64,000 bases of DNA, taken from a virus. A program made the translations under genes and the position numbers. The stretch lies in the IMG/VR virus record IMGVR_UViG_3300032116_000065, positions 37,319-101,318 of that record; one strand, 5' to 3'. Positions 13,845 through 63,302 of this stretch are shown in pieces. Each line of letters begins with the position of its first letter. The stretch's first letter is position 1. The notes beneath the pieces are model-generated. The model saw only the letters and a list, made by a program, of their open reading frames with translations. It was not told the DNA's origin and did not search any database.

Positions 13845-15503
13845 TTAGTTCCTAGTATACAAGAAAGTTACAGTAAGGTCTGCTCCAGGGACACCTGATC
13901 CTGCAGCTGCAGTATCAACAGTTATATAGTCTCCATTATTTATATTTGCAGCAACGTTATAGGTTTCAGAGGATGATTGAGTTGATGTAATATTTAAGGT
14001 GATAAAGTTAGCACCATTTTTCACAATAACAAATCGTGCATTCGATCCTGCAGGAGCAGTTTCTAATCTTGCCTTTACAGAGGTGAGAGTTATGTTTCCT
14101 GGAACGTACCATTTTTGAGTTCCAGCACTGACTGTTAACGTCCCTGTTTTATGAAAGTGGCGCTCAAAGGTTGGTTTATTTGCTACAATTCGAGCATCAG
14201 CCTGACCCGCAACCCAGTTGATAAACTCTGAGGTTGTATTTGCATAATCGACAAAGTTCTTTGGAATCCATTTACCTGTTATTTCGTCTTTCCAAAGGAA
14301 AGACATCGCGAGATCGCCAGCAATTGGATCGTCTATAATAATCTCATTATACATTCCATTTTTAAGATGCTGCAAATATACCTTTGGAATACCATTTCCA
14401 GATAGATTAACTTGTAAATCTCGTACGATAATATTACCACGCATTGCTGCGTGATTCCCACATTGATAATGGAGAGTGTTCGGAGCATTATTTGCGACAA
14501 TCCAAGTGAGAGTATTCCCAGAAGTTGCTCTACTATTTGAAATGCCAGTTGTATACTCACCGACATACGCACCAGACGAAAAGCTGTTTGCGTTACTTGT
14601 CGTAATATACAGTGGATGATTTGATTCGCTTCCAGTTACTTGAAAACGATAAGTTCCACCGCGATAAACAATCACTTCTTCATTAAAGTTGTGGCTCTCA
14701 TCGACATGCCAGTGCGCAGGGGCAGCTGCATTTCCTTGATGACTCATCATTCCTTCAAATGTAATGTTCACATTTGGTGCATTGAGAGTTGGAGAAACTG
14801 CACCGAAAGTCTCTGGAATGTTCCAGGTTAAAGTTTGTACAGTATTCCCATTAATAGTTGTATTTCCATAAACAACACCATCAACTAGATTACCATTACC
14901 AGCGCCAGGAATCCACTTAATAAACGCATTGTGAATATGAGTTGCGTTAGCAACAGCGGTCACATTTAAATTACTTGCTTTATTTGTCCAGACATATCTA
15001 CCTTTCTTGTGAATGGTGATGGCTGGATCTAAAGTATTTGACGTGAGTGTTCGATTATATGGATTTCCATTTGAAAGCCAAGACCATGACCATGATCCTG
15101 TTGAACCAATACCATGCGAATCAAGTGTAAAATTTAATATTTCTGGAGGAAACTTATCAACAGAACTCAGGTCAGCAATATCTCCTCCAAACCCAACATT
15201 CGAAGAAACTGCAGTTTGAATTTCTGCAATATTGATTTCACCATTCGTTGTATTCGAAGTAGCAGTCTTACCTTCTGCAGTAATAATCAACGCCTTTGGA
15301 CTTGGTGTATTTGCAGTTGGTTTGCCAACAATGGCAACAGTTCCTGTATTTGCATCAATAGAGAGTTTAGCACCACCTAAATTAATCGTGCTACCGCTGA
15401 GATACATATCGCGAAAACGACCATTAGCAGTTCCAATATCAAACAACTCATTGTTTGCTGGAGTAAGGTGACCATCAATGATTGTATTTTTCAGTAATGC
15501 CAT
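13845..15503 (-). CDS. Tail fibre with cupredoxin-like domain
   Basis: A 552-residue protein. N-terminus (MALLKNTIIDGHLTPANNEL) followed by a fibre head (FRDMYLSGSTINLGG) typical of phage tail fibres. At about residues 225-365 a cupredoxin-type sandwich is visible: VIVYRGGTYRFQVTGSESNH with His296, then LHYQCGNHAAMRGNIIV with Cys348, His351 and Met354, the His-Cys-His-Met set of type 1 copper sites, with C-x2-H-x2-M spacing. The C-terminal ~100 residues form another beta domain (TLTVSAGTQKWYVPGNITL). Copper binding is inferred, not shown; the fold might have kept the residues for another reason. A second such domain occurs in the 1180-residue fibre. Confidence 0.8.
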   Translation of the reverse strand: MALLKNTIIDGHLTPANNELFDIGTANGRFRDMYLSGSTINLGGAKLSIDANTGTVAIVGKPTANTPSPKALIITAEGKTATSNTTNGEINIAEIQTAVSSNVGFGGDIADLSSVDKFPPEILNFTLDSHGIGSTGSWSWSWLSNGNPYNRTLTSNTLDPAITIHKKGRYVWTNKASNLNVTAVANATHIHNAFIKWIPGAGNGNLVDGVVYGNTTINGNTVQTLTWNIPETFGAVSPTLNAPNVNITFEGMMSHQGNAAAPAHWHVDESHNFNEEVIVYRGGTYRFQVTGSESNHPLYITTSNANSFSSGAYVGEYTTGISNSRATSGNTLTWIVANNAPNTLHYQCGNHAAMRGNIIVRDLQVNLSGNGIPKVYLQHLKNGMYNEIIIDDPIAGDLAMSFLWKDEITGKWIPKNFVDYANTTSEFINWVAGQADARIVANKPTFERHFHKTGTLTVSAGTQKWYVPGNITLTSVKARLETAPAGSNARFVIVKNGANFITLNITSTQSSSETYNVAANINNGDYITVDTAAAGSGVPGADLTVTFLYTRN

Positions 15504-39419: not shown

Positions 39420-39428
39420 TATATTTAG
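39420..39428 (-). promoter_or_regulatory. Late-type promoter before the ligase-like gene
   Basis: Minus strand CTAAATATA (39420-39428) overlapping the stop codon of the SDR gene, followed by a CCAC-AGT-GTGG mini-hairpin, a GGAGAG SD and the ATG of the 380-residue gene. It matches the boxes in front of the large fibres; it would separate the sugar cassette from the virion-like genes. Confidence 0.45.
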
Positions 39429-40309
39429 TTAATTTGATTAATTAAGATATCTTGAATGATCGTATCAATCGTTTCGTTGATCGTATGCTCTGAACGATAT
39501 CCCAACTCTTTTAACTTGGTATTATCCATAAAGAAAGAGCGAGAAGATTGAACCTTCTTATGAAACTCTTTCTGTTCAATCGTACGAATCTCTGAGCCAG
39601 AGTCCATTGCATCTCGAGCATAACGAATAATATCACGAAAGATTATTCCCTTTCCGTTTCCGATGTTGTAGATTGAGTTGAGTTCGCCCTTGTTGACGAC
39701 CAAATCGATTGCTCGAGCGCAATCCCTAACATCAATATAGTCACGATAAAAATAACCACTATCATAGAGGTCGACTCGTTTGTTTGCAGCGAGTTCGCCC
39801 AATAGATATTGGACTGCGTTCTTCTTCGCAGAAACTTTTTTATCTTTCGGACCAAGGACATTGGCTAATCTCAGAATGCGGTAATTCAAATTGAATGTCT
39901 CGCAATAAGACATAAGCAACTGCTCAGCGCATCGTTTTGTTATCGAATAAAAACCCTTTGGATCACAAGGATCTGTTTCAGGAATGCCACGTGCACCCTC
40001 TCCGAAACCCGAGTCCTGTCCATAGACAAACCAAGAACTGATGAAGTTGAAACATCCATCTTTCTTGTTCGTCTCTATATAGAATCGATAATTGTTCAGA
40101 ACTCTCATCAAAATCGTTAGATTAGTGTCAATATCCAAATTAGGATCGACGTGTACGTTATAATTGTCAACAGTACTAATAAAGTAAACAACGTCGGGAG
40201 AAAATACTCCGATATTTTCTCGATAATTTTTGATATACCCATTTTTCGTTGTATTGCAGAATTGCGATCCGACGAATCCGTTTCCTCCGAAAACATTTAG
40301 CATACCCAT
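39425..40309 (-). CDS. NAD(P)-dependent sugar epimerase/dehydratase or ketoreductase (SDR)
   Basis: A 294-residue extended short-chain dehydrogenase. Rossmann motif GGNGFVGS (residues 8-15), catalytic FISSWFVYG with Ser, and YSITK (Tyr/Lys) are intact; DYIDVRDCARAIDL and YNIGNGKGIIF follow as in nucleotide-sugar enzymes. Downstream of rmlA/rmlB and the 3-dehydrase it is the best candidate for the 4-ketoreductase that finishes a 3,6-dideoxyhexose. It could be an epimerase instead. The start (ATG at 40309, or 40303) overlaps the dehydrase gene by about 10 nt. Confidence 0.86.
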   Translation of the reverse strand: MGMLNVFGGNGFVGSQFCNTTKNGYIKNYRENIGVFSPDVVYFISTVDNYNVHVDPNLDIDTNLTILMRVLNNYRFYIETNKKDGCFNFISSWFVYGQDSGFGEGARGIPETDPCDPKGFYSITKRCAEQLLMSYCETFNLNYRILRLANVLGPKDKKVSAKKNAVQYLLGELAANKRVDLYDSGYFYRDYIDVRDCARAIDLVVNKGELNSIYNIGNGKGIIFRDIIRYARDAMDSGSEIRTIEQKEFHKKVQSSRSFFMDNTKLKELGYRSEHTINETIDTIIQDILINQIN

Positions 40310-41592
40310 TTTTGCATTACACTCTCATAATAGGCAAACACTTCTTCACCGTAGTGCGGTGGGCATCCGACGAAGAACACATTGCTCAATGCCTTGTTTG
40401 CGTTTGGATACTTGGTAGCATCATCAAGATGCTTGTAGCCAGGATGCAATAGAATATTTCCAGCGAAGTAATTGCGAGTTTGAATTTTATTCTCTTCACA
40501 GAAGGCTTGTAGTTTTTCCTTCAGTTCAGGTGTATCAGTGATCAACGGAACACCGAACCATGACGGATCAGCCAAGAGAAGATTCTCAGCAACACGAACA
40601 CCAGGGATATACTTTTCAAAGAGATGCTTGATGCGCGCAAAGTTCACACGACGCTTGACGTCAATTTCATCAATCTTTTTCAACTGCTCAATACCAATCG
40701 CACCTTGAAGATCAAGTGGTTTGAGATTATATCCCATGTTCGTGAAGAGATACTTGTGATCGATTATTCCATTATATCCTTCAAGCCATTTATCAAAGCG
40801 ATTACCACATGTTCCACAAGCCAATAGGTTAGCAGCACCAACGCAACGACAATCACGACCCCACCAGCTAATGCTGCGAGCAGTGTTGATGAGTTGCTCG
40901 TCGTTTGAGCAAACCATCCCGCCTTCGCCTGTCGAAATGTGGTGAGCAGGATAGAAAGAAGTTGTCCACGCATAGTAATAATCCGTTAGAAGTTTACCAT
41001 CCCACTTTGTGCCCAATGAATCGCAGTTATCGCCAATCAAACGAATGCCGTGTCGCTCGCACATATCTTTGATGCGATCCATATGTGGCGGATTGCCGAG
41101 AACGGGTGAAACGAAAATAGCGACGGTCTTATCAGTGATCCACTTTTCAACTTGATCAAGATCAAAGTTGAGCGTTTTCATTTCAATGTCAACAAAGACT
41201 GGAGCAAGACCATTCTGAACCAACGGAGCAATCGTTGTTGGGAATCCAACGGGTGATACGATAACTTGATCACCATCCTTCCAACCCAAGTGCTTCTTAA
41301 GAGCAGCAACCATAGTCAAGTTGGCTGATGACCCAGAGTTCACCATGTGACAATGCTTCACATTAAACTTGTGACCGAATGCCCACTGAAACTTTGCAAC
41401 CTGCTCACCAGAGACGAGCCACTTGCCTGTGAGGAATGCAGTGACGCCAGCAATGACTTCTTTCTCGTCCCAATATGGACCAGAATAAAAGACTGTATCT
41501 TTGCCAGGAGTAAACTCTTTGCAATTGTAAGCATACTTCGGTGTGCCAACAGTGGCAACCAATTCTTCAATCATTTGTTTTACGTCACTCAT
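40297..41592 (-). CDS. rfbH: PLP/PMP-dependent, [2Fe-2S] nucleotide-sugar 3-dehydrase (RfbH/E1-like)
   Basis: A 431-residue DegT/DnrJ/EryC1/StrS fold protein. Instead of the aminotransferase lysine it has His217 in SFYPAHHISTGEGG, the mark of the E1-type 3-dehydrases (RfbH, AscC). The cluster ligands of the family, C-x57-C-x1-C-x7-C, appear as Cys190, Cys248, Cys250 and Cys262, with a 4-residue insertion before the last. These enzymes remove the 3-hydroxyl of a 4-keto-6-deoxyhexose nucleotide, needing a flavin/iron-sulphur reductase (E3) that is not in the window. The known E1 works on CDP sugars; here the neighbours make a dTDP sugar, so a dTDP substrate (as for SpnQ) is inferred. Start overlaps the rmlA stop (TAATG). 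Confidence 0.85.
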   Translation of the reverse strand: MSDVKQMIEELVATVGTPKYAYNCKEFTPGKDTVFYSGPYWDEKEVIAGVTAFLTGKWLVSGEQVAKFQWAFGHKFNVKHCHMVNSGSSANLTMVAALKKHLGWKDGDQVIVSPVGFPTTIAPLVQNGLAPVFVDIEMKTLNFDLDQVEKWITDKTVAIFVSPVLGNPPHMDRIKDMCERHGIRLIGDNCDSLGTKWDGKLLTDYYYAWTTSFYPAHHISTGEGGMVCSNDEQLINTARSISWWGRDCRCVGAANLLACGTCGNRFDKWLEGYNGIIDHKYLFTNMGYNLKPLDLQGAIGIEQLKKIDEIDVKRRVNFARIKHLFEKYIPGVRVAENLLLADPSWFGVPLITDTPELKEKLQAFCEENKIQTRNYFAGNILLHPGYKHLDDATKYPNANKALSNVFFVGCPPHYGEEVFAYYESVMQKWVC

Positions 41593-42464
41593 TATTTCAT
41601 CCTCAAAATTTGACCAAGATATTTACCATAATCAGACTTGCTGTACTTCTCAGCAGCACGACGAACTTCGTGTTCTGTGATCCAAGCATTATTATACGCT
41701 ATTTCTTCGGGGCAAGCAATCATCATGCCTGTTCTTCTTTGTACTGAGCCAACAAAAGTTGACGCCTCAGATAGAGATTCGAATGTGCCAGTATCAATCC
41801 ATGCAATACCACGATTTAGATATTCAATTGTACAATCATGGTTTTCCATGTAAAGATTATTAATATCAGTGATCTCTAACTCTCCTCTTGCAGAAGGCTG
41901 AATCTGCCATGCATAGTCTACTACTTTATTGTCATAAAAGTAAAGCCCAGTGACTGCATAATTGCTTGGTGCAACTTTTGGTTTTTCAATAATCTTAACT
42001 GGATTGCCACTTGAGTCTTGTTCAATCACACCAAATCTCTCTGGATCAGCAACATGATATGCAAATAAGGTAGAACCCTTGTGGTTGTTTGCTGCGCGAT
42101 TGAAACGATTGATAAGTTCATTGCCATAGAAGATATTGTCGCCAAGAATAAGCGTGACATCATCTTCACCGATCCATTTCTCAGCAATACGAAAACATTC
42201 GGCGATACCCTTTGGCTCCAATTGAGTAGCATAAGAAATGCTCAATCCCCACTGAGAACCATTTCCAATTAGATTCTCAAATGGTGCACGATCAATGGGT
42301 GACGTGATGATCAGAATATCTCGAATGCCCGCCATCATCAATGTTGAGATTGGATAGTAGACCAATGGTTTGTCGTAGACAGGAAGTAACTGCTTAGATA
42401 TCGCCTTTGTGCATGGGTATAGACGTGAGCCTAGTCCACCAGATAAAATAATTCCTTTACGCAT
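41592..42464 (-). CDS. rmlA: Glucose-1-phosphate thymidylyltransferase
   Basis: A 290-residue RmlA: makes dTDP-glucose from dTTP and glucose-1-phosphate. Signature GGLGSRLYP (residues 9-17) with Gly in place of the usual Ser/Thr-Gly order, Lys in SKQLLPVYDKPLVYYP, GDNIFYG and the dTDP-binding EKP-YAVTGLYFYDN region are all present; length is as in bacterial enzymes. It is the first committed step for the sugar cassette and overlaps rmlB by 8 nt. Confidence 0.92.
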   Translation of the reverse strand: MRKGIILSGGLGSRLYPCTKAISKQLLPVYDKPLVYYPISTLMMAGIRDILIITSPIDRAPFENLIGNGSQWGLSISYATQLEPKGIAECFRIAEKWIGEDDVTLILGDNIFYGNELINRFNRAANNHKGSTLFAYHVADPERFGVIEQDSSGNPVKIIEKPKVAPSNYAVTGLYFYDNKVVDYAWQIQPSARGELEITDINNLYMENHDCTIEYLNRGIAWIDTGTFESLSEASTFVGSVQRRTGMMIACPEEIAYNNAWITEHEVRRAAEKYSKSDYGKYLGQILRMK

Positions 42465-43407
42465 TATACCACTCCAAAGTTTTAATTAAGCCATCATTAA
42501 TATTCGTTTTCGCTTGCCAACCCAAGTCGTGTGCAATTTTAGTCGCATCCATCGAGTACCTAAAATCGTGACCTTTACGATCAGGTACAAAATTAATCCA
42601 GTTCTGATACATGTGAACTGGTTTGCCCATTAGATCGAGAATCAGTGTAACCATTTGAAGGTTGCTCATCTCAACTCCACCGCCGATATTATAACGCTCA
42701 CCAGACTTAAAGTTTGCACCGATCGTGAGCAATGCCTCGCAATGATCGTCGACAAAGATCCAGTCACGAACATTTTGACCTGTACCATAAACAGGAATTG
42801 GTGTATTGTTCTTGATATGACGAATTACTGTTGGGATAAACTTTTCTTTGTGCTGTCGCGGACCGTAGTTATTTGAGCAATTAGTCACAACTGCATCAAT
42901 CTTATGTGTATTCACATATGCGCGAACTAAATGATCGCTTGCTGCCTTTGATGCAGAATACGGATTGCGAGGATCGTATGGAGTCTTTTCGGTGAATGGT
43001 GGATCGTCATGAGAGAGTGATCCATAGACTTCATCGGTAGAGATATGTACGAGTTTGCCACCAAACTTACGAATACATTTTAGAATGTTGTGAGTGCCAT
43101 CAATATTGGTGCTGAGGAAAATGTCATCACCAGCAATAGAATTATCAACATGAGACTCAGCCGCAAAATGAAAGGTAATGTCTGGCTCATAATCGTGATA
43201 AATTTGATCCAGTAAAGGGAGATTGCGAATGTCACAACGCTTCACGATGACACGATAGTCCTCATGAAGACCAAGAATATTGTTCGAATCTGCTGCGTAC
43301 GAGTAGTTGTCAATAATAACAACTGTATCAGAAGGATGCTTTTTTAGGTGAGCATGGACAAAATTAGATCCAATAAATCCCAAACCACCAGTCACAAATG
43401 TCGTCAT
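42457..43407 (-). CDS. rmlB: dTDP-glucose 4,6-dehydratase
   Basis: A 316-residue RmlB: converts dTDP-glucose to dTDP-4-keto-6-deoxyglucose using bound NAD+. GGLGFIGS (7-14), HFAAESHVDNSI, the catalytic STDEVYG, YSASK and TNCSNNYGPRQHKEK are all intact. It starts the sugar operon. Length is slightly shorter than typical bacterial enzymes but without missing motif. The gene ends 8 nt inside rmlA. Confidence 0.93.
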   Translation of the reverse strand: MTTFVTGGLGFIGSNFVHAHLKKHPSDTVVIIDNYSYAADSNNILGLHEDYRVIVKRCDIRNLPLLDQIYHDYEPDITFHFAAESHVDNSIAGDDIFLSTNIDGTHNILKCIRKFGGKLVHISTDEVYGSLSHDDPPFTEKTPYDPRNPYSASKAASDHLVRAYVNTHKIDAVVTNCSNNYGPRQHKEKFIPTVIRHIKNNTPIPVYGTGQNVRDWIFVDDHCEALLTIGANFKSGERYNIGGGVEMSNLQMVTLILDLMGKPVHMYQNWINFVPDRKGHDFRYSMDATKIAHDLGWQAKTNINDGLIKTLEWYNA

Positions 43408-50992: not shown

Positions 50993-51198
50993 TATTCACT
51001 ATCACCTGCATCACGATTTTCAGTATTATGTCGCTTCATCTTGAAGCCAACATGATTGGCGTGAGCATTTATCATTGATCGACGAAGATCACCACGTGCA
51101 TGTTGATCACCAGTAAAGTTATAAACTTGACCCATTGTAAGCATGCGCTTGATGCTGCGTGGAAGTTTTGCACTAAAAAAGTCACTACGATTAGCCAT
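50992..51198 (-). CDS. Conserved small basic protein of T4-like phages
   Basis: A 68-residue protein: MANRSDFFSAKLPRSIKRML, then GDLRRSMINAHANHVGFKMK. The start at 51198 overlaps the stop of the glycosyltransferase-like gene by 8 nt; a longer frame would overlap it by 200 nt and is rejected. Recurrent small protein in T4-like phages with unknown function; strongly basic, compatible with nucleic-acid binding (inference). Confidence 0.72.
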   Translation of the reverse strand: MANRSDFFSAKLPRSIKRMLTMGQVYNFTGDQHARGDLRRSMINAHANHVGFKMKRHNTENRDAGDSE

Positions 51199-51883
51199 TG
51201 AGTAATTCCTCACACTTCTTTGTAAATCTTTCGTTTTGTCCTGGATGAAAACTTTGGTACATATGCCAGAACAAATCCATTGTTGTACCATCTCTATTTG
51301 TAAGACCAAATGTTGTGCCGATGCCATACTTCGGCATACCATCAGCAAGATCCCAGTATGGTGGTGCATCCTTTGGTTCCCAATCCATACGAATTGGCGG
51401 TGCATCATAACGCAGCGGCATCAAGATCTCAATAGGTATATTACTCTCTCTGGCTCTAAAAGTCAATTCTTCTGCAACATCACCACGATAGTTTGGCATA
51501 AACGAAGGATTGCCAAGTTTACGATACATTTCAACAGTGAATGTTACGTTATGTGGTGCGCAGAAAACATGTTGATCATTCTGTATATGATTGCTTCGCT
51601 GTGCAGAGCCAATCACCTTCCCCATATATGCTCTTTCGAAAAAGTAATTGAGTGCATTATTTTCCAGAGGCAAACAATCAATGTCCAAGAACATAATTGC
51701 ATCATGCCCTTTTTGTTCGAGCATATCAACAAGTTTATCCATTGTATAGCCAGGAGGTGCCTCTGTGTATACATGATAGTGTGGAATCTTTGATACATTA
51801 TATTTCTCAACAACTTGTTTCTGTAGAGCAACAAGTTTTTGATCAATATTGTTCATGAATATAGATGCGATACATGGGTTCAT
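51191..51883 (-). CDS. Glycosyltransferase-like protein
   Basis: A 230-residue protein. ATG at 51883 chosen (MNPCIASIFMNNIDQKLVAL): it overlaps the upstream stop in a TAATG and has GGAG before it; a longer frame would run into the methyltransferase gene. IMFLDIDCLPLENNALNYFF gives a DxD-type metal/nucleotide-sugar motif, and the fold order matches a GT-A-like domain. First gene at the 3' side of the glycan cassette. Sugar and acceptor unknown. Confidence 0.7.
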   Translation of the reverse strand: MNPCIASIFMNNIDQKLVALQKQVVEKYNVSKIPHYHVYTEAPPGYTMDKLVDMLEQKGHDAIMFLDIDCLPLENNALNYFFERAYMGKVIGSAQRSNHIQNDQHVFCAPHNVTFTVEMYRKLGNPSFMPNYRGDVAEELTFRARESNIPIEILMPLRYDAPPIRMDWEPKDAPPYWDLADGMPKYGIGTTFGLTNRDGTTMDLFWHMYQSFHPGQNERFTKKCEELLNG

Positions 51884-52674
51884 TATGTTTCTCCAATAGT
51901 TCCTGAAATTGTTATCCACAAAGGCTTGATATCAATTTCTTCTTCAGGATATACAAATCCATATGGCTTTTCGCAGACAGCAATATAATAGCCATTCCAC
52001 CAATCTGGATCATAGTGAATTTCATCATTTACTTTTTGAGTGTTGCCGAATATTTCCCATTCTTTATGAACTTTGACATATGCCGATTCAAATCCCAATC
52101 GAGTTCCTTCGCGGACCGCTTCTGTATTCCAATCATCGACAATATAAATGAATACATCTGATAAAGAATTCACATAGTATGTGATTGCTTGAGTGTGATC
52201 TTCTTTTGTATGTCCTGCATCGAACAGATACGTGTTGATATCACGAATGTCGAACTTGTCTGGCGGAAGAAGATCGAAACAGTCGCCTTGTATGCAGGTA
52301 AAGTTTGTGATGCCATTATCTTCGCAGTTGTCTAGAAAATATAGAAATAGTCCATTCTTGACATTGATTCCAGAATACTCAACGTCCACTTTCATATCCA
52401 TTTCCCAACTATCTTTTGCCGAGAATGAATCAACTACGAATGCAGATTTTGGCTTGTTGCCATACATTGCATTGATAAATGTAGAGCCTGTAAATGTGCC
52501 AACCTCTAGATAGTTGGTATCATCTTTCACAAGTTCATTTAGAAGAATTCGAATCTTTTTTCCAGATAATCCTTTGACTTCACTGATTTGCTTTTCTGTC
52601 AACTTTGTCTGATTATCATTAGCGCATTTGAGAGCAGACTCAACTCTCTCAACATATTTTTTTACTTGATCCAT
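51883..52674 (-). CDS. SAM-dependent methyltransferase-like protein
   Basis: A 263-residue protein with NYLEVGTFTGSTFINAMYGN (motif I-like glycine loop), AFVVDSFSAKDSWEMD, NFTCIQGDCFDLLPPDKFDI and TYLFDAGHTKEDHTQAITYY followed by IVDDW, as in the TylF/Methyltransf_24 group. Overlaps the next gene's 3' end by 13 nt. Probably methylates a sugar or glycan precursor together with the adjacent gene at 52662. Confidence 0.75.
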   Translation of the reverse strand: MDQVKKYVERVESALKCANDNQTKLTEKQISEVKGLSGKKIRILLNELVKDDTNYLEVGTFTGSTFINAMYGNKPKSAFVVDSFSAKDSWEMDMKVDVEYSGINVKNGLFLYFLDNCEDNGITNFTCIQGDCFDLLPPDKFDIRDINTYLFDAGHTKEDHTQAITYYVNSLSDVFIYIVDDWNTEAVREGTRLGFESAYVKVHKEWEIFGNTQKVNDEIHYDPDWWNGYYIAVCEKPYGFVYPEEEIDIKPLWITISGTIGET

Positions 52675-53303
52675 GCAGCCTTCCCATGAAAGTCTACAAC
52701 CTTATCACCAAATACTTCTTTTGCAGCAACCTTGATTGGGTTGTGGTGCCAATCGTCAATGATCATATATCCACCCTCTCTCAAAACTTCTGAATATCGA
52801 AACAAATCGATCTTTACATATTCGTAGTCATGAGCAGCATCAATATAAATCAAATCGGCTTGCACACCCCAATGCTTCAACGCAAGAGCACCATTACCAG
52901 AGTCGACTGGAAATGGCGTGATCACATCTTGTAGTTTCTCATGAACAATGTTTGATAAGAATTGATCATAGATTTTTGGACGACCATTTTTTCTAGTTTC
53001 TAGAAGATCAAATGTTCCCATAGTGCAATAGTGTTCATATGAACCGAGAAATGTGTCAACGCAAATAACTTCAAGTTCAACATCTCGAACACCCTCAGCC
53101 AAAGTAAGTTTTGCCATGTTTATGGCAGAGGCACCTTTCCAAGTTCCCACTTCAATGATTGTTTTAGGTTTGAGTTTTTTGATTGCTTCGCTGAAACTCT
53201 CTCCTGTGCTCGACCATCCCTGAGTATCTTTCTCTAGAACATCTAGATCTTGAAAGATGTCAGTTCCAATTCCATGGATTTTATCGCTTATTGTTTTAGC
53301 CAT
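52662..53303 (-). CDS. SAM-dependent methyltransferase (Methyltransf_24/CmcI-like)
   Basis: A 213-residue protein (start at 53303, MAKTISDKIHGIGTDIFQDL) overlapping the GT2 stop by 8 nt. KTIIEVGTWKGASAINMAKL, EVICVDTFLGSYEHYCTMG, ADLIYIDAAHDYEYVKIDLF and GGYMIIDDWHHN are the motif I, II, and catalytic/metal-like regions of cephalosporin-hydroxylase-like and class I methyltransferases. The longer frame is rejected because its first 32 residues overlap the GT2 gene. Confidence 0.77.
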   Translation of the reverse strand: MAKTISDKIHGIGTDIFQDLDVLEKDTQGWSSTGESFSEAIKKLKPKTIIEVGTWKGASAINMAKLTLAEGVRDVELEVICVDTFLGSYEHYCTMGTFDLLETRKNGRPKIYDQFLSNIVHEKLQDVITPFPVDSGNGALALKHWGVQADLIYIDAAHDYEYVKIDLFRYSEVLREGGYMIIDDWHHNPIKVAAKEVFGDKVVDFHGKAAWIK

Positions 53304-54048
53304 GATTTTTCCATGGTAATTTGTTATTATGCAATTGCAACATCGCTTGGTTTCCACGAAGGAAAAACTCTCCCTGTACGGAGAGTCCTGTATTACCAAC
53401 TCGATATTTCACTGTATAGTCGCGAGTGCAATCATACTTTAGATTGTTTTGTTTTCCCATTAGTATTGATGCAATGGCTCGATCGATTTCCATCTGACCT
53501 GGCTCGCGAAATTTGCGATACCAAACTGGACTCATGCCAACTGCCACTTCTTTCTTGACAAAATAACAATTGACGTCAACAAAGAAATCTTGTGGACTGA
53601 GAATAGAATGCCATAAACCAAGACTCTCACAATCATCTAAACAGATTACATTGCTATCTTTATCTATAATCTTTCTAAACGAAAAAGCCCAATCGAGTTT
53701 CTTTTCTTGAACAATTTTTATGAGACTTTCTATATGAGTTGGTTCTAGAACATTGTCATCATCTAACCAAATATGATAATCGCCATCTGCGAAATAAGTA
53801 GCAGCACCATACACACGGTGACCGTTGTAACGATTAGTGCCTGTAGGGTAGGGTAAAATGCAGACATGTTCATTCATTCCATTTGGGAATTCAGAAGCCA
53901 ATAAGATTTCGTCTGCCTTATTCCAACGTTCTTTACCATCAACAACTACAATGTGCTCGATATTTTGGTATGTTTGCGCTCTTACAGATGCAATGCATTC
54001 TGCAAGATATGGGTTGCCTGTGGTTGGTGTGATGACAGAGACTTTCAC
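53296..54048 (-). CDS. Family 2 glycosyltransferase
   Basis: A 250-residue GT-A enzyme: SVITPTTGNPYLAECIASVR, TYQNIEHIVVVDGKERW, YHIWLDDDNVLEP (DDDN carries the DxD metal site) and SPVWYRKFREPGQMEIDRAI as probable acceptor-side region. It should transfer a sugar from a nucleotide donor. Near its end the message has a hairpin ACUCUCC-loop-GGAGAGU followed by UUUUU (53363-53386). In the same operon as FkbM and two other methyltransferases. Confidence 0.84.
   Translation of the reverse strand: MKVSVITPTTGNPYLAECIASVRAQTYQNIEHIVVVDGKERWNKADEILLASEFPNGMNEHVCILPYPTGTNRYNGHRVYGAATYFADGDYHIWLDDDNVLEPTHIESLIKIVQEKKLDWAFSFRKIIDKDSNVICLDDCESLGLWHSILSPQDFFVDVNCYFVKKEVAVGMSPVWYRKFREPGQMEIDRAIASILMGKQNNLKYDCTRDYTVKYRVGNTGLSVQGEFFLRGNQAMLQLHNNKLPWKNHG
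53363..53386 (-). terminator. Weak terminator-like hairpin inside the GT2 gene
   Basis: Minus-strand RNA: ACUCUCC (53386-53380), loop 6 nt, GGAGAGU (53373-53367), then UUUU. Seven perfect base pairs and a short U run, at codons about 221-229 of the glycosyltransferase. It may be chance or a partial termination point inside the operon. Confidence 0.3.
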
Positions 54049-54830
54049 TTGAACATCACCTTGCTGCCAGGAACTTGTTCGCTCAATCTCTGCTCAACTT
54101 TCTTAGACAAATTGATGTCGTTGAAAGCATAAATGAATCCTCTTCGAACCAATACCTGTTTGTATCCGTATTGCTGAAGAACTTCAATCATAGCATCTTT
54201 TCTTTCTTTATACCAGTCATCATTCCAACATTCAATCATGAGAGGAGGAGTCTGATTATTCTCTATAATCTTTCCTGAACCTTTAAGCACTTCCAGTTCC
54301 ATTCCAGAAACTGTGATCTTGACTAGAGCAACATTACCAAATCTAAAATCATCTAGAGTTCGTAATTCGTAAACATCGATCTCATTTGGAACTGGAATAT
54401 TTCTATTTGTATAACTATCGATCAAAAAAGAAAATGCACCATGATTCACAGCAGCAAGATCGAAAATGGCATGATCAATGACCTCATTTCGATCTGCAAC
54501 ACCAAATCTATAGCAACGAACATTGTATAGTCTATTCAGCAGCGCATTTGCATTCAATTGCTGATTGATGGCAGGAACTGGCTCAAATGCCTCGAAGATA
54601 TGACTCTTCATGTATTTGATTGCGAGCGGCACAGTGAATCCACCGAGACCAGAACCAACATCAATAACTCTGTTGCCCTTATTTTCGCTTAAAACTATAT
54701 CTGCAATTTCTAAGTTGTAGGTGTTCCAATATTGGTTTCGTCGAATCTCATCAGAAATAATTTCTGTCTGAGCGAACAAAGCATATTGAGTTCCGTTTCT
54801 AGTAACGTGGACTTTTACTTCTGGTTGCAT
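54045..54830 (-). CDS. FkbM-family methyltransferase with altered catalytic segment
   Basis: A 261-residue FkbM-type protein (start ATG 54830, two bases after the previous stop; the longer frame begins with TTG). RVIDVGSGLGGFTVPLAIKY is the SAM-binding loop, IFEAFEPVPAINQQLNANAL follows, and VALVKITVSGMELEVLKG is the family's signature region. Usually this reads IKIDVEGxE-xVLxG: here Thr replaces Asp and Ser replaces Glu, so activity could be altered. It should O-methylate a sugar or similar acceptor. It overlaps GT2 by four bases. Confidence 0.8.
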   Translation of the reverse strand: MQPEVKVHVTRNGTQYALFAQTEIISDEIRRNQYWNTYNLEIADIVLSENKGNRVIDVGSGLGGFTVPLAIKYMKSHIFEAFEPVPAINQQLNANALLNRLYNVRCYRFGVADRNEVIDHAIFDLAAVNHGAFSFLIDSYTNRNIPVPNEIDVYELRTLDDFRFGNVALVKITVSGMELEVLKGSGKIIENNQTPPLMIECWNDDWYKERKDAMIEVLQQYGYKQVLVRRGFIYAFNDINLSKKVEQRLSEQVPGSKVMFK

Positions 54831-54832
54831 AA

Positions 54833-55321
54833 TTAATCCCAAAGATTCTCATAGTATTTGCCAAACAAACGAAAGGCATTTTTCTTGCGAGCATAGTATG
54901 CTTTGGCTTTTTCGGTATCATAAACTGGCTCAACAAGAGTTATCATCTCGCTCCAATCTTGACCTTCCTTCTTGACCCACTTGTGTTTGCCTTTCTTGAT
55001 ACAGAAATTTGGGTCACGGTCTTTGGCAAGTTCGCCAAATGCCCAAATCATCTCTTTCATGATCCAGTCCCAACGCTTGAAGTGATTGGAGTCAGTATCC
55101 CATTCGTTCTTCTTTGGTTTTGCGTTGGTAGAACGAAGATGCTCAGGCACATCTTCGTCATCGGTATATGGTGCACCATGATTGGTTTTGTGCAACTGCC
55201 TGAGCATCGGATGAATGATGTCAGCAAGAGTATGCGCCATGTTCCATGTATCCCATGAATCAATGCGAATAGACTTTTTCTGTTCACCTTTCTTCGGATA
55301 TTTACCGATAGAGATCTTCAT
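54833..55321 (-). CDS. Conserved phage hypothetical, 162 residues
   Basis: MKISIGKYPKKGEQKKSIRI, then WDTWNMAHTLADIIHPMLRQ and WDTDSNHFKRWDWIMKEMIW, rich in Trp and His. Recurrent in marine T4-like phages, function unknown. No catalytic motif was recognised. Ends 3 nt before FkbM and is co-directional with the early-gene cluster to its right. Confidence 0.75.
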   Translation of the reverse strand: MKISIGKYPKKGEQKKSIRIDSWDTWNMAHTLADIIHPMLRQLHKTNHGAPYTDDEDVPEHLRSTNAKPKKNEWDTDSNHFKRWDWIMKEMIWAFGELAKDRDPNFCIKKGKHKWVKKEGQDWSEMITLVEPVYDTEKAKAYYARKKNAFRLFGKYYENLWD

Positions 55322-61193: not shown

Positions 61194-61574
61194 TCAATCA
61201 CCCTTATATAATTGTTTCTTCATCGCGGTGATCTGGTCGTCAGAAAGGATCTTTAATGCTTCCTCTGCTTTCGCATCGGAGTATCCATAGTATTCTTTAA
61301 CAACACTCAAATCACTACTTTGAGCCTTTTTATGCCATTTAGAGTATGGTCGCTTAGAGGCTCTAACAATATTTAGGAGAAAATCATATTTGAGTTTATT
61401 ATCGAGAGTCGTGTATCGATTCATTTCGTTCGCTAATAGAACGGTGTCTCTATGAAAAGAAAGAGCACGATTGACCATAAAAGATGAGTATGACTTTTCA
61501 TCCTGTTCTGTCAGAAGAGCATACTGCTTCGTCTGTAGAATAGACGGAATAATTTCTTTAAAGAGGTCAGCCAT
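61194..61574 (-). CDS. 62: Clamp loader small subunit gp62
   Basis: A 126-residue gp62 (T4: about 187), with SFMVNRALSFHRDTVLLANE, NIVRASKRPYSKWHKKAQSS and VVKEYYGYSDAKAEEALKIL. It forms the clamp loader with gp44. Its start overlaps the end of the inserted homing endonuclease gene by 8 nt, so translation probably couples to that gene. Confidence 0.88.
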   Translation of the reverse strand: MADLFKEIIPSILQTKQYALLTEQDEKSYSSFMVNRALSFHRDTVLLANEMNRYTTLDNKLKYDFLLNIVRASKRPYSKWHKKAQSSDLSVVKEYYGYSDAKAEEALKILSDDQITAMKKQLYKGD

Positions 61575-62370
61575 TGAAAGGTTCGCCTAATTGTGATTTT
61601 CTTTTACGCTGTTCTTCTGCATGCCGTTTTCTTCCTTCAATAAGTTTTTCAATTGCTTCTGGATGATTTTTAATATATTCTTTTCTATCGTAAGATCTCT
61701 TCACCAGCATTTCTGGATTATTCATATAATATTCTTTCATTGCAATAGAAGATTTTACTGCTCTATTTGTGTTATTTTTTGATGGGTGTTTTTCTGGATT
61801 ATTTTTATAATACTCTTTTTTTGCAGCAGATATTTCCTGTTTCTTTTCTGGATTATTTCTATAATATGCCTTCATTGAATTAGACATTTTATTGCGAACT
61901 TCGGGTCTTTTTGCGGGATTATTTTTACCAGAAAATAATTTTTGCATTTTCTCTTTATGCTTATTGGCAATACCAGGATTACGCATTGGATTACAATTTG
62001 GATCTTTTTTTAACCTTTCAGTTTGCGAAAAAGACAATTTACTGCGAACTTCTGTTCTTTTTGTTGGATTATTATCCCCAATAAAAGCATCAGACATTTT
62101 TTTTCTTAACCAACCATATAGTTTATTATTTCTAGATTCACCGATGGTCATCATGGATGCAGCATATAACAAACTATAATTTTCTGGATAAATTTTTAAT
62201 AGTAATTGATGGGCAACATAATGCTCTTCAGCAGTTAGATCTACCAGATTGGTCGGATCGTCATTTCCACCCATGCATCTTGGAATGATGTGGTGCGTCT
62301 CGCAATAACCCTCAAGCAATCTATTTTTTGCTCTGTTTATCAGAGCATCATAATGCTTTTGGTAGTTCAT
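61567..62370 (-). mobile_element. HNH homing endonuclease gene between gp44 and gp62
   Basis: A 267-residue protein (start 62370; overlaps the gp44 stop by four bases). HNH site: ETHHIIPRCMGGNDDPTNLV and HYVAHQLLLKIYPENYSLLY. The C-terminal half has four tandem (K/R)EYYxNNPE-type units (YYRNNPE, YYKNNPE, YYMNNPE, YIKNHPE) that likely contact DNA. In T4 several intercistronic homing endonucleases occupy comparable positions; this gene separates two genes normally adjacent, an independent gain. It is intact, with no inactivating change seen. Confidence 0.88.
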
Positions 62371-63302
62371 GAGAACTTGCACTCCACCATCATCTCTGTA
62401 AGACATGCGGTGAGGTTCAGTTCCTGATCTGCGACAAATGCTGATTGATATTGATACTTTGCGAGAATCAAAACTGCATTTGGAATCGTGGACTTATCCA
62501 TAACTTCATAAAGACTGTCATAGATCTTACGATAAATCTTCGCAGGATCGTCGCTACCAAAATCAGCAACCCACTTACGCATTGCACTGAAGTTTTGATC
62601 TTTGAGTGATGCAACCAATTCAGTCAATGAAACATCAGCAATACTGGAAAGAATCCCAGCATCAATCTTACCGCTGACAGAATATCTTTGGAGTTCGTTT
62701 AGAACACGACGATAGTCAGGGAAGTGCTTCTTGACAACTTCAGCCAGTACTGCTTTATCATACGGCACCTTTTCAGTTGCGAGGATTTCAGCAGCACGCT
62801 TCATAAACGCCATTGCCATCTTGGGTTTATCTTCCTTGCGTAGTTTGAATTCAATCACAGCGCAGCGAGAATGCAATGGCTCAATGATACGGTTCTTGTA
62901 GTTACAAGTCATGATGAAGGTGCAGTTATGCGCAAACTCTTCCATTGCAGCACGCATGGCTGGTTGAGTTGAGTTTGGATTTAGATAATCTGCTTCGTCG
63001 ATAATGATGACTTTTTTACCGCCACCAAGAGACATTGCACTCGCATAGTTCTTGATCTTTGTTCGAAACGTATCAATACCACTCTCATCCGACCCGTTGA
63101 TCATCAAATAGTCGCAACCAATCTCATCACACAGCGCTCTTGCAACTGTAGTCTTGCCAGTGCCAGGTCCACCGCAGAGAAGGAGATGAGGAATCTCCTT
63201 GCGATCTACATACGACTGAAAAGTGGACTTGTATTCCTCTGGAAGGATACAATCGGCAATAGTATGAGGACGGTATTTTTCAACCCACAATGCTTCAACC
63301 AT
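62367..63302 (-). CDS. 44: Clamp loader large subunit gp44
   Basis: A 311-residue AAA+ ATPase: VEKYRPHTIADCILPEEY, Walker A GGPGTGKT (44-51), Walker B KVIIIDEADYLNPNSTQPAM, SRC arginine-finger region (PLHSRCAVIEF) and a helical C-terminus. Loads the sliding clamp with gp62. The start lies 50 nt from the Tat-signal gene, with an SD. Confidence 0.94.
   Translation of the reverse strand: MVEALWVEKYRPHTIADCILPEEYKSTFQSYVDRKEIPHLLLCGGPGTGKTTVARALCDEIGCDYLMINGSDESGIDTFRTKIKNYASAMSLGGGKKVIIIDEADYLNPNSTQPAMRAAMEEFAHNCTFIMTCNYKNRIIEPLHSRCAVIEFKLRKEDKPKMAMAFMKRAAEILATEKVPYDKAVLAEVVKKHFPDYRRVLNELQRYSVSGKIDAGILSSIADVSLTELVASLKDQNFSAMRKWVADFGSDDPAKIYRKIYDSLYEVMDKSTIPNAVLILAKYQYQSAFVADQELNLTACLTEMMVECKFS

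What the first reader, a model, noticed from the sequence alone, without database searches (positions are those of the whole stretch)
39425..43407. Phage operon predicted to make a dTDP-3,6-dideoxyhexose using an iron-sulphur dehydrase
rmlA and rmlB yield dTDP-4-keto-6-deoxyglucose. The next gene lacks the PLP lysine (His217 instead) and has the C-x57-C-x1-C-x(n)-C cluster pattern of E1 3-dehydrases with a 4-residue insertion before the last Cys. An SDR follows. Known E1 enzymes take CDP sugars, while here a dTDP sugar is made, so the pathway would be a variant. No RmlC/D, E3 reductase or glycosyltransferase is in the same operon; a host reductase would have to serve. Dideoxysugars are surface antigens, so the phage may remodel host LPS or its own glycoprotein.
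Basis: partly seen in the sequence, partly recalled or inferred. Interest (0 to 1): 0.7.

Follow-up and report, generated by a model that had tools for sequence, protein, structure and literature searches.

The report
Phage cassette for dTDP-dideoxysugar synthesis
Four neighbouring genes of a lake bacteriophage very probably make a rare sugar lacking two hydroxyl groups, using an iron-sulphur enzyme of a distinct subfamily shared by many aquatic phages and a few bacteria; related phages swap the sugar-finishing genes at the same spot, so each phage seems able to choose which sugar it makes.

Summary
Window 39425-43407 (minus strand) holds rmlB, rmlA, a 431-aa E1/RfbH-type protein and an SDR in an overlapping array on a T4-like freshwater phage record (101 kb). 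The E1-like protein has His217 for the PLP lysine and C190-x57-C248-x1-C250-x11-C262; its AlphaFold model matches Yersinia E1 best (Z 51 against 46 for the next fold). It belongs to a separate, fully supported subfamily (more than 160 aquatic phage loci, ten bacterial genomes). All members checked have the x11 spacing, which no other E1 relative sampled shows. Most sit beside one dedicated SDR and often near dTDP-type rmlB/rmlA, never near the CDP genes rfbF/rfbG that accompany other E1s. In related phages the same site keeps rmlB-rmlA but swaps the next module: E1-SDR, a rhamnose synthase (NRS/ER), both, RmlC-RmlD, or a halogenase. Best explanation: RmlA/RmlB make dTDP-4-keto-6-deoxyglucose, the Fe-S dehydrase removes O-3 with a host electron donor, and the SDR reduces C4 to a dTDP-3,6-dideoxyhexose for host or virion glycan. 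Correction: dTDP-using 3-dehydrases are known (SpnQ), but on a 2-deoxy substrate. Catalysis, product and acceptor are not shown.

The parts
42457..43407 (-). rmlB: dTDP-glucose 4,6-dehydratase (316 aa), with TDE and YxxxK catalytic motifs
   Evidence: TIGR01181 396 bits over cut-off 365; CDP-glucose dehydratase model only 89 bits
41592..42464 (-). rmlA: glucose-1-phosphate thymidylyltransferase (290 aa)
   Evidence: TIGR01207 422 bits over cut-off 361; glucose-1-phosphate cytidylyltransferase model only 22 bits
40297..41592 (-). E1-type [2Fe-2S]/PMP sugar 3-dehydrase (431 aa), distinct subfamily; H217, C190, C248, C250, C262
   Evidence: phmmer 3bcx E 4e-74; motif in 168/168 of subfamily; AF2 pLDDT 90.7, VIA Z 51.0 to E1; tree support 100 without the insertion columns
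39425..40309 (-). dedicated extended SDR (294 aa), predicted C4 keto-reductase; GxxGxxG, S-Y-K triad, no TDE dehydratase motif
   Evidence: PF01370; triad invariant in 49/49, Arg/Lys at the end of beta 2 in 49/49; beside E1 in 140/165 phage loci; AF2 pLDDT 92

Best explanation
The four genes are a complete phage route to a dTDP-linked 3,6-dideoxyhexose, given a host electron donor. RmlA makes dTDP-glucose and RmlB turns it into dTDP-4-keto-6-deoxyglucose (strong inference from equivalog families). The E1-type enzyme binds PMP, forms a Schiff base with the 4-keto sugar, His217 takes a proton and the C3 hydroxyl leaves; its [2Fe-2S] cluster passes electrons from a host ferredoxin or flavodoxin (reductase) to reduce the intermediate to dTDP-4-keto-3,6-dideoxyglucose (inferred from E1/SpnQ). 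The SDR then reduces C4 with NAD(P)H to a D-series 3,6-dideoxyhexose of the paratose/abequose type (inferred; stereochemistry unknown; no RmlC-like epimerase found). A glycosyltransferase of phage or host places the sugar on a host surface glycan or on a virion protein (weakest step). The site is modular: sister phages keep rmlB-rmlA and exchange the finishing enzymes.
For: Family scores for RmlA/RmlB, dTDP not CDP. E1 homology, catalytic His, four Cys and fold. Subfamily is one side of a branch with support 100 even without the insertion columns, and has the x11 linker in all members checked. Dedicated SDR beside E1 in 140/165 phage loci and in 8 of 11 near bacterial loci (ten genomes), 0/75 elsewhere; rmlB at 40% identity or more in 64/92 phage loci; rfbF/rfbG in 0 of the subfamily but 36/53 and 22/53 of other E1 loci. 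Bacteriovoracales carry rmlB-rmlA divergent from SDR-E1 beside glycosyltransferase-like genes. Same site in sister phages: rmlB-rmlA followed by NRS/ER or RmlC-RmlD-like genes, which use exactly the RmlB product. Purifying selection. SpnQ precedent for dTDP substrate and generic electron donors.
Against: No biochemistry. The E1 protein falls below the RfbH equivalog cut-off. No electron donor is encoded in this record. Many marine relatives have no rmlA, and some stand-alone SDR-E1 pairs (L090, L092, L261) have no rml gene nearby, so the sugar nucleotide is inferred from context. In some cyanophages the SDR sits next to rmlC several genes away from E1, so the SDR may not act only after E1. The Cys loop is modelled with low confidence (pLDDT about 55-70).
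Confidence: 0.65

Rival explanations
1. The E1-SDR pair is a genuine 3-dehydrase module but acts on a host-made CDP- or other NDP-4-keto-6-deoxyhexose, while rmlA-rmlB serve another branch such as rhamnose.
For: Some SDR-E1 pairs have no rml gene nearby; some freshwater relatives have NRS/ER in the same cassette, so rmlAB feeds at least two branches there; most characterised E1 homologues by context are CDP-type.
Against: No subfamily locus has rfbF or rfbG; in the window rmlAB has no other outlet found in the record (no RmlC); in Bacteriovoracales and marine phages rmlB itself is next to SDR-E1.
Confidence: 0.15
2. The enzyme works as an aminotransferase or as a reductase-free (ColD- or SpnQ-like) enzyme, giving a 4-amino or hydrolytically deoxygenated sugar.
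For: SpnQ shows transamination with PLP and glutamate when no reductase is present (PMC8987622); no reductase is encoded here.
Against: Lysine replaced by His in all subfamily members scored and four cluster cysteines in all of them; E1 and wild-type ColD showed no transamination under those conditions.
Confidence: 0.08
3. The SDR is an epimerase rather than a C4 reductase, or makes the L-series by epimerising before reduction; a host SDR finishes the sugar.
For: Fold matches to UDP-sugar epimerases, RmlB and GDP-4-keto-6-deoxy-D-mannose reductase are tied.
Against: Basic residue at the end of beta 2 in 49/49, typical of NADP(H)-using reductases (inference); lacks the RmlB TDE motif.
Confidence: 0.2
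4. The sugar modifies phage DNA or a virion protein rather than host surface glycan.
For: T4-like phages glycosylate DNA bases (own knowledge); Synechococcus phage S-B43, which carries a 57% relative of this E1, makes carboxymethylcytosine described as a handle for hypermodification (abstract of PMC12783734); glycan clusters of cyanophages lie near tRNA and baseplate genes.
Against: No DNA glycosyltransferase or dCMP hydroxymethylase was recognised here (not searched exhaustively).
Confidence: 0.3

Closest known systems
E1 / AscC-DdhC-RfbH, CDP-4-keto-6-deoxyglucose 3-dehydrase (Yersinia, Salmonella)
   Same: Fold, catalytic His, four-Cys [2Fe-2S] site with x57 and x1 spacings
   Different: 34-38% identity; x11 instead of x7 before the last Cys; separate clade; dTDP genes and a dedicated SDR instead of rfbF-rfbG; no E3 gene
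SpnQ (spinosyn pathway), dTDP-4-keto-2,6-dideoxyglucose 3-dehydrase
   Same: dTDP substrate, [2Fe-2S] and His, works with generic ferredoxin/flavodoxin reductases (PMC8987622)
   Different: SpnQ substrate lacks O-2; Streptomyces homologues fall among the other E1s, not in this subfamily
ColD, GDP-4-keto-6-deoxymannose 3-dehydrase
   Same: Fold and His for Lys
   Different: ColD has no iron-sulphur cluster and needs no reductase; GDP sugar
RmlABCD / plant and mimivirus NRS-ER dTDP/UDP-rhamnose routes
   Same: Shared trunk to the NDP-4-keto-6-deoxyglucose; NRS/ER or RmlC-RmlD occupy the same phage site in relatives
   Different: Window cassette has no 3,5-epimerase and carries the C3 dehydrase instead
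Viral auxiliary genes listed as ascC/ddhC/rfbH (PMC10653327)
   Same: Same KEGG-type annotation already reported from marine viromes; S-H68 gene annotated as CDP-4-dehydro-6-deoxy-D-glucose 3-dehydratase
   Different: The CDP label is contradicted here by dTDP-type context; no paper was found that separates the subfamily or notes the SDR partner

Membership tests
[2Fe-2S], PMP-dependent sugar 3-dehydrases (E1/SpnQ type) | Lysine of aminotransferases replaced by His | tested here: met
   H217; in 167 of 168 subfamily sequences, the one other not scored
[2Fe-2S], PMP-dependent sugar 3-dehydrases (E1/SpnQ type) | Four cluster cysteines | tested here: met
   C190, C248, C250, C262 aligned with the E1 ligands and invariant
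[2Fe-2S], PMP-dependent sugar 3-dehydrases (E1/SpnQ type) | E1 fold | tested here: met
   AF2 model, VIA Z 51.0 to 3bb8/3bcx, next 46.3
[2Fe-2S], PMP-dependent sugar 3-dehydrases (E1/SpnQ type) | C3 deoxygenation activity with an electron donor | not testable with these tools
   Needs an in vitro assay
RfbH/E1 proper (CDP-type) | Score above the RfbH equivalog cut-off | tested here: not met
   361 bits, cut-off 423
RfbH/E1 proper (CDP-type) | Genomic link to rfbF/rfbG and CDP-glucose | tested here: not met
   0 of the subfamily loci; dTDP-type rmlA/rmlB instead
RfbH/E1 proper (CDP-type) | C-x57-C-x1-C-x7-C spacing | tested here: not met
   x11
RmlA (TIGR01207) | Curated cut-off | tested here: met
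   422 bits against 361
RmlB (TIGR01181) | Curated cut-off | tested here: met
   396 bits against 365
Extended SDR, C4 keto-reductase | Rossmann GxxGxxG and S-Y-K triad | tested here: met
   49/49 invariant
Extended SDR, C4 keto-reductase | Reductase rather than epimerase specificity | tested here: inconclusive
   Reductase, epimerase and dehydratase folds tie; basic residue at the end of beta 2 favours NADP(H)
dTDP-3,6-dideoxyhexose pathway | Product detected | not testable with these tools
   No chemistry available

The most novel reading that the evidence does not exclude
An unrecognised E1 subfamily, spread mainly by aquatic phages, removes O-3 from dTDP-4-keto-6-deoxyglucose and with its own SDR gives dTDP-linked 3,6-dideoxyhexoses, a route absent from the reviewed list of characterised 3-dehydrases; T4-like freshwater phages carry it as one of several interchangeable finishing modules behind a fixed rmlB-rmlA trunk, and so change which sugar they install.
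Probability: 0.55. Interest if true: 0.72.

Novelty: new variant of a known kind. Interest (0 to 1): 0.58.

Why it matters
If right, 3,6-dideoxyhexoses, known as CDP- or GDP-linked O-antigen sugars, also have a dTDP route, and current annotation of many viral and bacterial genes as CDP-type (ascC/ddhC/rfbH) is wrong in substrate. The fixed trunk with swapped finishing enzymes at one phage site is a ready natural series for testing what phage-made sugars are for (masking receptors, excluding rival phages, virion decoration), with cultured Synechococcus phages (S-B05, S-B43, RB11-B, RN05-S) available as relatives.

Tried and rejected
Chance or mis-annotation: rejected. A PLP aminotransferase with the lysine elsewhere: His at the Lys position in all subfamily members scored. 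An E3-like reductase or ferredoxin in the phage record: none by regex or Pfam; three of six other phage records searched do carry a [2Fe-2S] ferredoxin, all three from E1-bearing marine contigs, so phage-borne electron supply is possible in relatives. RmlC in the record: none. SDR as a second RmlB: rejected, no TDE motif. Fold search could not decide reductase against epimerase. Literature searches found no paper on this subfamily or on a dTDP-3,6-dideoxyhexose route in phages; the library is open-access only, so absence is weak. The Salmonella phage S.Kent hit of 2,570 bases was ignored as likely host DNA. Host not identified: the helicase is nearest to cyanophages, marine single-cell viruses and Methylophilales phage Melnitz at 62-65%.

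Full report
WHAT IS THERE. The window is part of a 101,318-base virus record with T4-like DNA polymerase, UvsX and DnaB-type helicase. Between a replication block and two long proteins lie four minus-strand genes with overlapping ends: rmlB 42457-43407, rmlA 41592-42464, an E1-like gene 40297-41592 and an SDR 39425-40309. RmlA and RmlB pass the curated equivalog cut-offs for the dTDP pathway and score far below the CDP models.

THE IRON-SULPHUR DEHYDRASE. The 431-aa protein's best solved relatives are Yersinia E1 (E 4e-74), then ColD. His217 stands where aminotransferases have lysine. Cysteines C190, C248, C250 and C262 align with the E1 cluster ligands; the extra C259 is not conserved. AlphaFold2 gives pLDDT 90.7, weak only in the cluster loop, and the model matches E1 at Z 51.0, ahead of all other relatives at 46.3 or less (Foldseek TM 0.87).

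A SEPARATE SUBFAMILY. Homologues were collected from phage records, viral contigs, bacterial genomes and genome searches by phylum, order and family. In a maximum-likelihood tree the phage proteins and a few bacterial ones (Bacteriovoracaceae, Nitrosomonadaceae, Prochlorococcus, Nitrospirales) form one side of a branch (98), support 100 when the insertion columns are cut out and five further bacterial members are added. The last-Cys linker is x11 in 168/168 members, against x7 in most other E1 relatives and x11 in none; the five members found later have x11 too. Streptomyces sequences (SpnQ-like by taxon; their context was not confirmed) fall among the other E1s, so dTDP use here would be a separate branch from SpnQ (inference).

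CONTEXT SAYS dTDP. In 140 of 165 phage loci a dedicated SDR (about 40-100% identical to the window's) is directly beside E1; among eleven near bacterial loci (ten genomes) it is beside E1 in eight. It is absent from all 75 other E1 loci. rfbF and rfbG occur in none of the subfamily loci but in 36 and 22 of 53 other loci with enough flank; rmlB-like genes occur in 64 of 92 phage loci. Phage loci are not independent samples. In Bacteriovoracales, rmlB-rmlA are divergent from SDR-E1 and pass the dTDP cut-offs. Marine phages show PMI-rmlB-SDR-E1 or cytidylyltransferase-like-rmlB-rmlC-SDR...E1.

MODULE SWAPPING AT ONE SITE. In 80 freshwater relatives the trunk rmlB-rmlA is followed by E1-SDR; in 28 an NRS/ER-type gene (PDB best 4qqr, 3,5-epimerase/4-reductase; 7jid, UDP-L-rhamnose synthase) precedes E1, and in 8 a tryptophan-halogenase-like gene (PF04820) does. 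Searching by the neighbouring helicase found the same site with rmlB-rmlA-NRS/ER and no E1-SDR (L267, L268, L269, L272, L279) and with rmlB-rmlA-RmlC-RmlD-like genes (L273, L274). Modules that trade places behind one trunk most simply share its product, dTDP-4-keto-6-deoxyglucose. This is the strongest context argument for the substrate.

THE SDR. The model (pLDDT 92) has the extended-SDR fold; GxxGxxG and the S-Y-K triad are invariant in 49/49 and Arg/Lys ends beta 2, which favours NADP(H). It lacks the TDE motif of RmlB. Fold matches do not separate reductase from epimerase. Reduction of C4 is the step the pathway lacks, so that is the proposed role (inferred).

ELECTRONS AND ACCEPTOR. E1 needs E3; SpnQ uses ferredoxin or flavodoxin reductase pairs (PMC8987622). 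This record has neither a ferredoxin nor a reductase of the FNR type, so a host donor is inferred; three of six other phage records tested, all from E1-bearing marine contigs, carry a ferredoxin. A GT2 gene and two methyltransferases at 52662-54842 are candidate users, unproven.

SELECTION. Median dN/dS against the window is 0.062 (E1), 0.100 (SDR), 0.059 (rmlA) and 0.108 (rmlB): all four are kept functional.

WHAT IS KNOWN. The review lists three characterised 3-dehydratases: E1 (CDP), ColD (GDP) and SpnQ (dTDP-4-keto-2,6-dideoxyglucose). ascC/ddhC/rfbH have been listed as viral auxiliary genes (PMC10653327). No paper found describes this subfamily, its SDR partner or a dTDP-3,6-dideoxyhexose. 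Verdict: new variant of a known enzyme and pathway kind; enzyme class about 0.9 likely, dTDP substrate about 0.75, SDR as C4 reductase about 0.6, acceptor open.

Noticed in passing
L063:7588-9213, L050:1846-3417, L077:5033-6649, L086:955-2556: Tryptophan-halogenase-like genes (PF04820, E 5e-103 for L063) inside the sugar cassette of eight freshwater relatives; substrate unknown.
   Followed up: partly
window 51191-54842: Glycan-like cluster on the same strand: GT2 (53296-54048), FkbM methyltransferase (54045-54842), Methyltransf_24/RMNT_CmcI-like (52662-53399) and two genes without Pfam hit.
   Followed up: partly
L087:14041-14979 (record 14041-14979): A GDP_Man_Dehyd/Epimerase-family protein that reads like UDP-glucuronate decarboxylase (UDP-xylose synthase); a second sugar-nucleotide gene in the record.
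   Followed up: no
L087:10975-13039: Porin-like gene next to a PstS-like phosphate-binding protein, as in phages of phosphate-limited waters.
   Followed up: no
window 61567-62406: ORF with an HHIIPRC motif that looks like an HNH homing endonuclease beside a clamp-loader subunit gene.
   Followed up: no
L003:3519-5450, L207, L208, L225: Cyanophages pair a small HldE/G3P-cytidylyltransferase-like gene with rmlB, rmlC and the SDR; if rmlC acts with E1 the product would be an ascarylose-type L-sugar.
   Followed up: partly
L259, L262: Bacterial subfamily E1 genes without the SDR nearby; L259 sits among other aminotransferase-like surface-sugar genes.
   Followed up: no
E1 in L007-L086: E1 (86-100%) is more conserved than rmlA, rmlB and the SDR in the same cassettes, whose identities vary out of step, which suggests recombination of single genes among these phages.
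   Followed up: no
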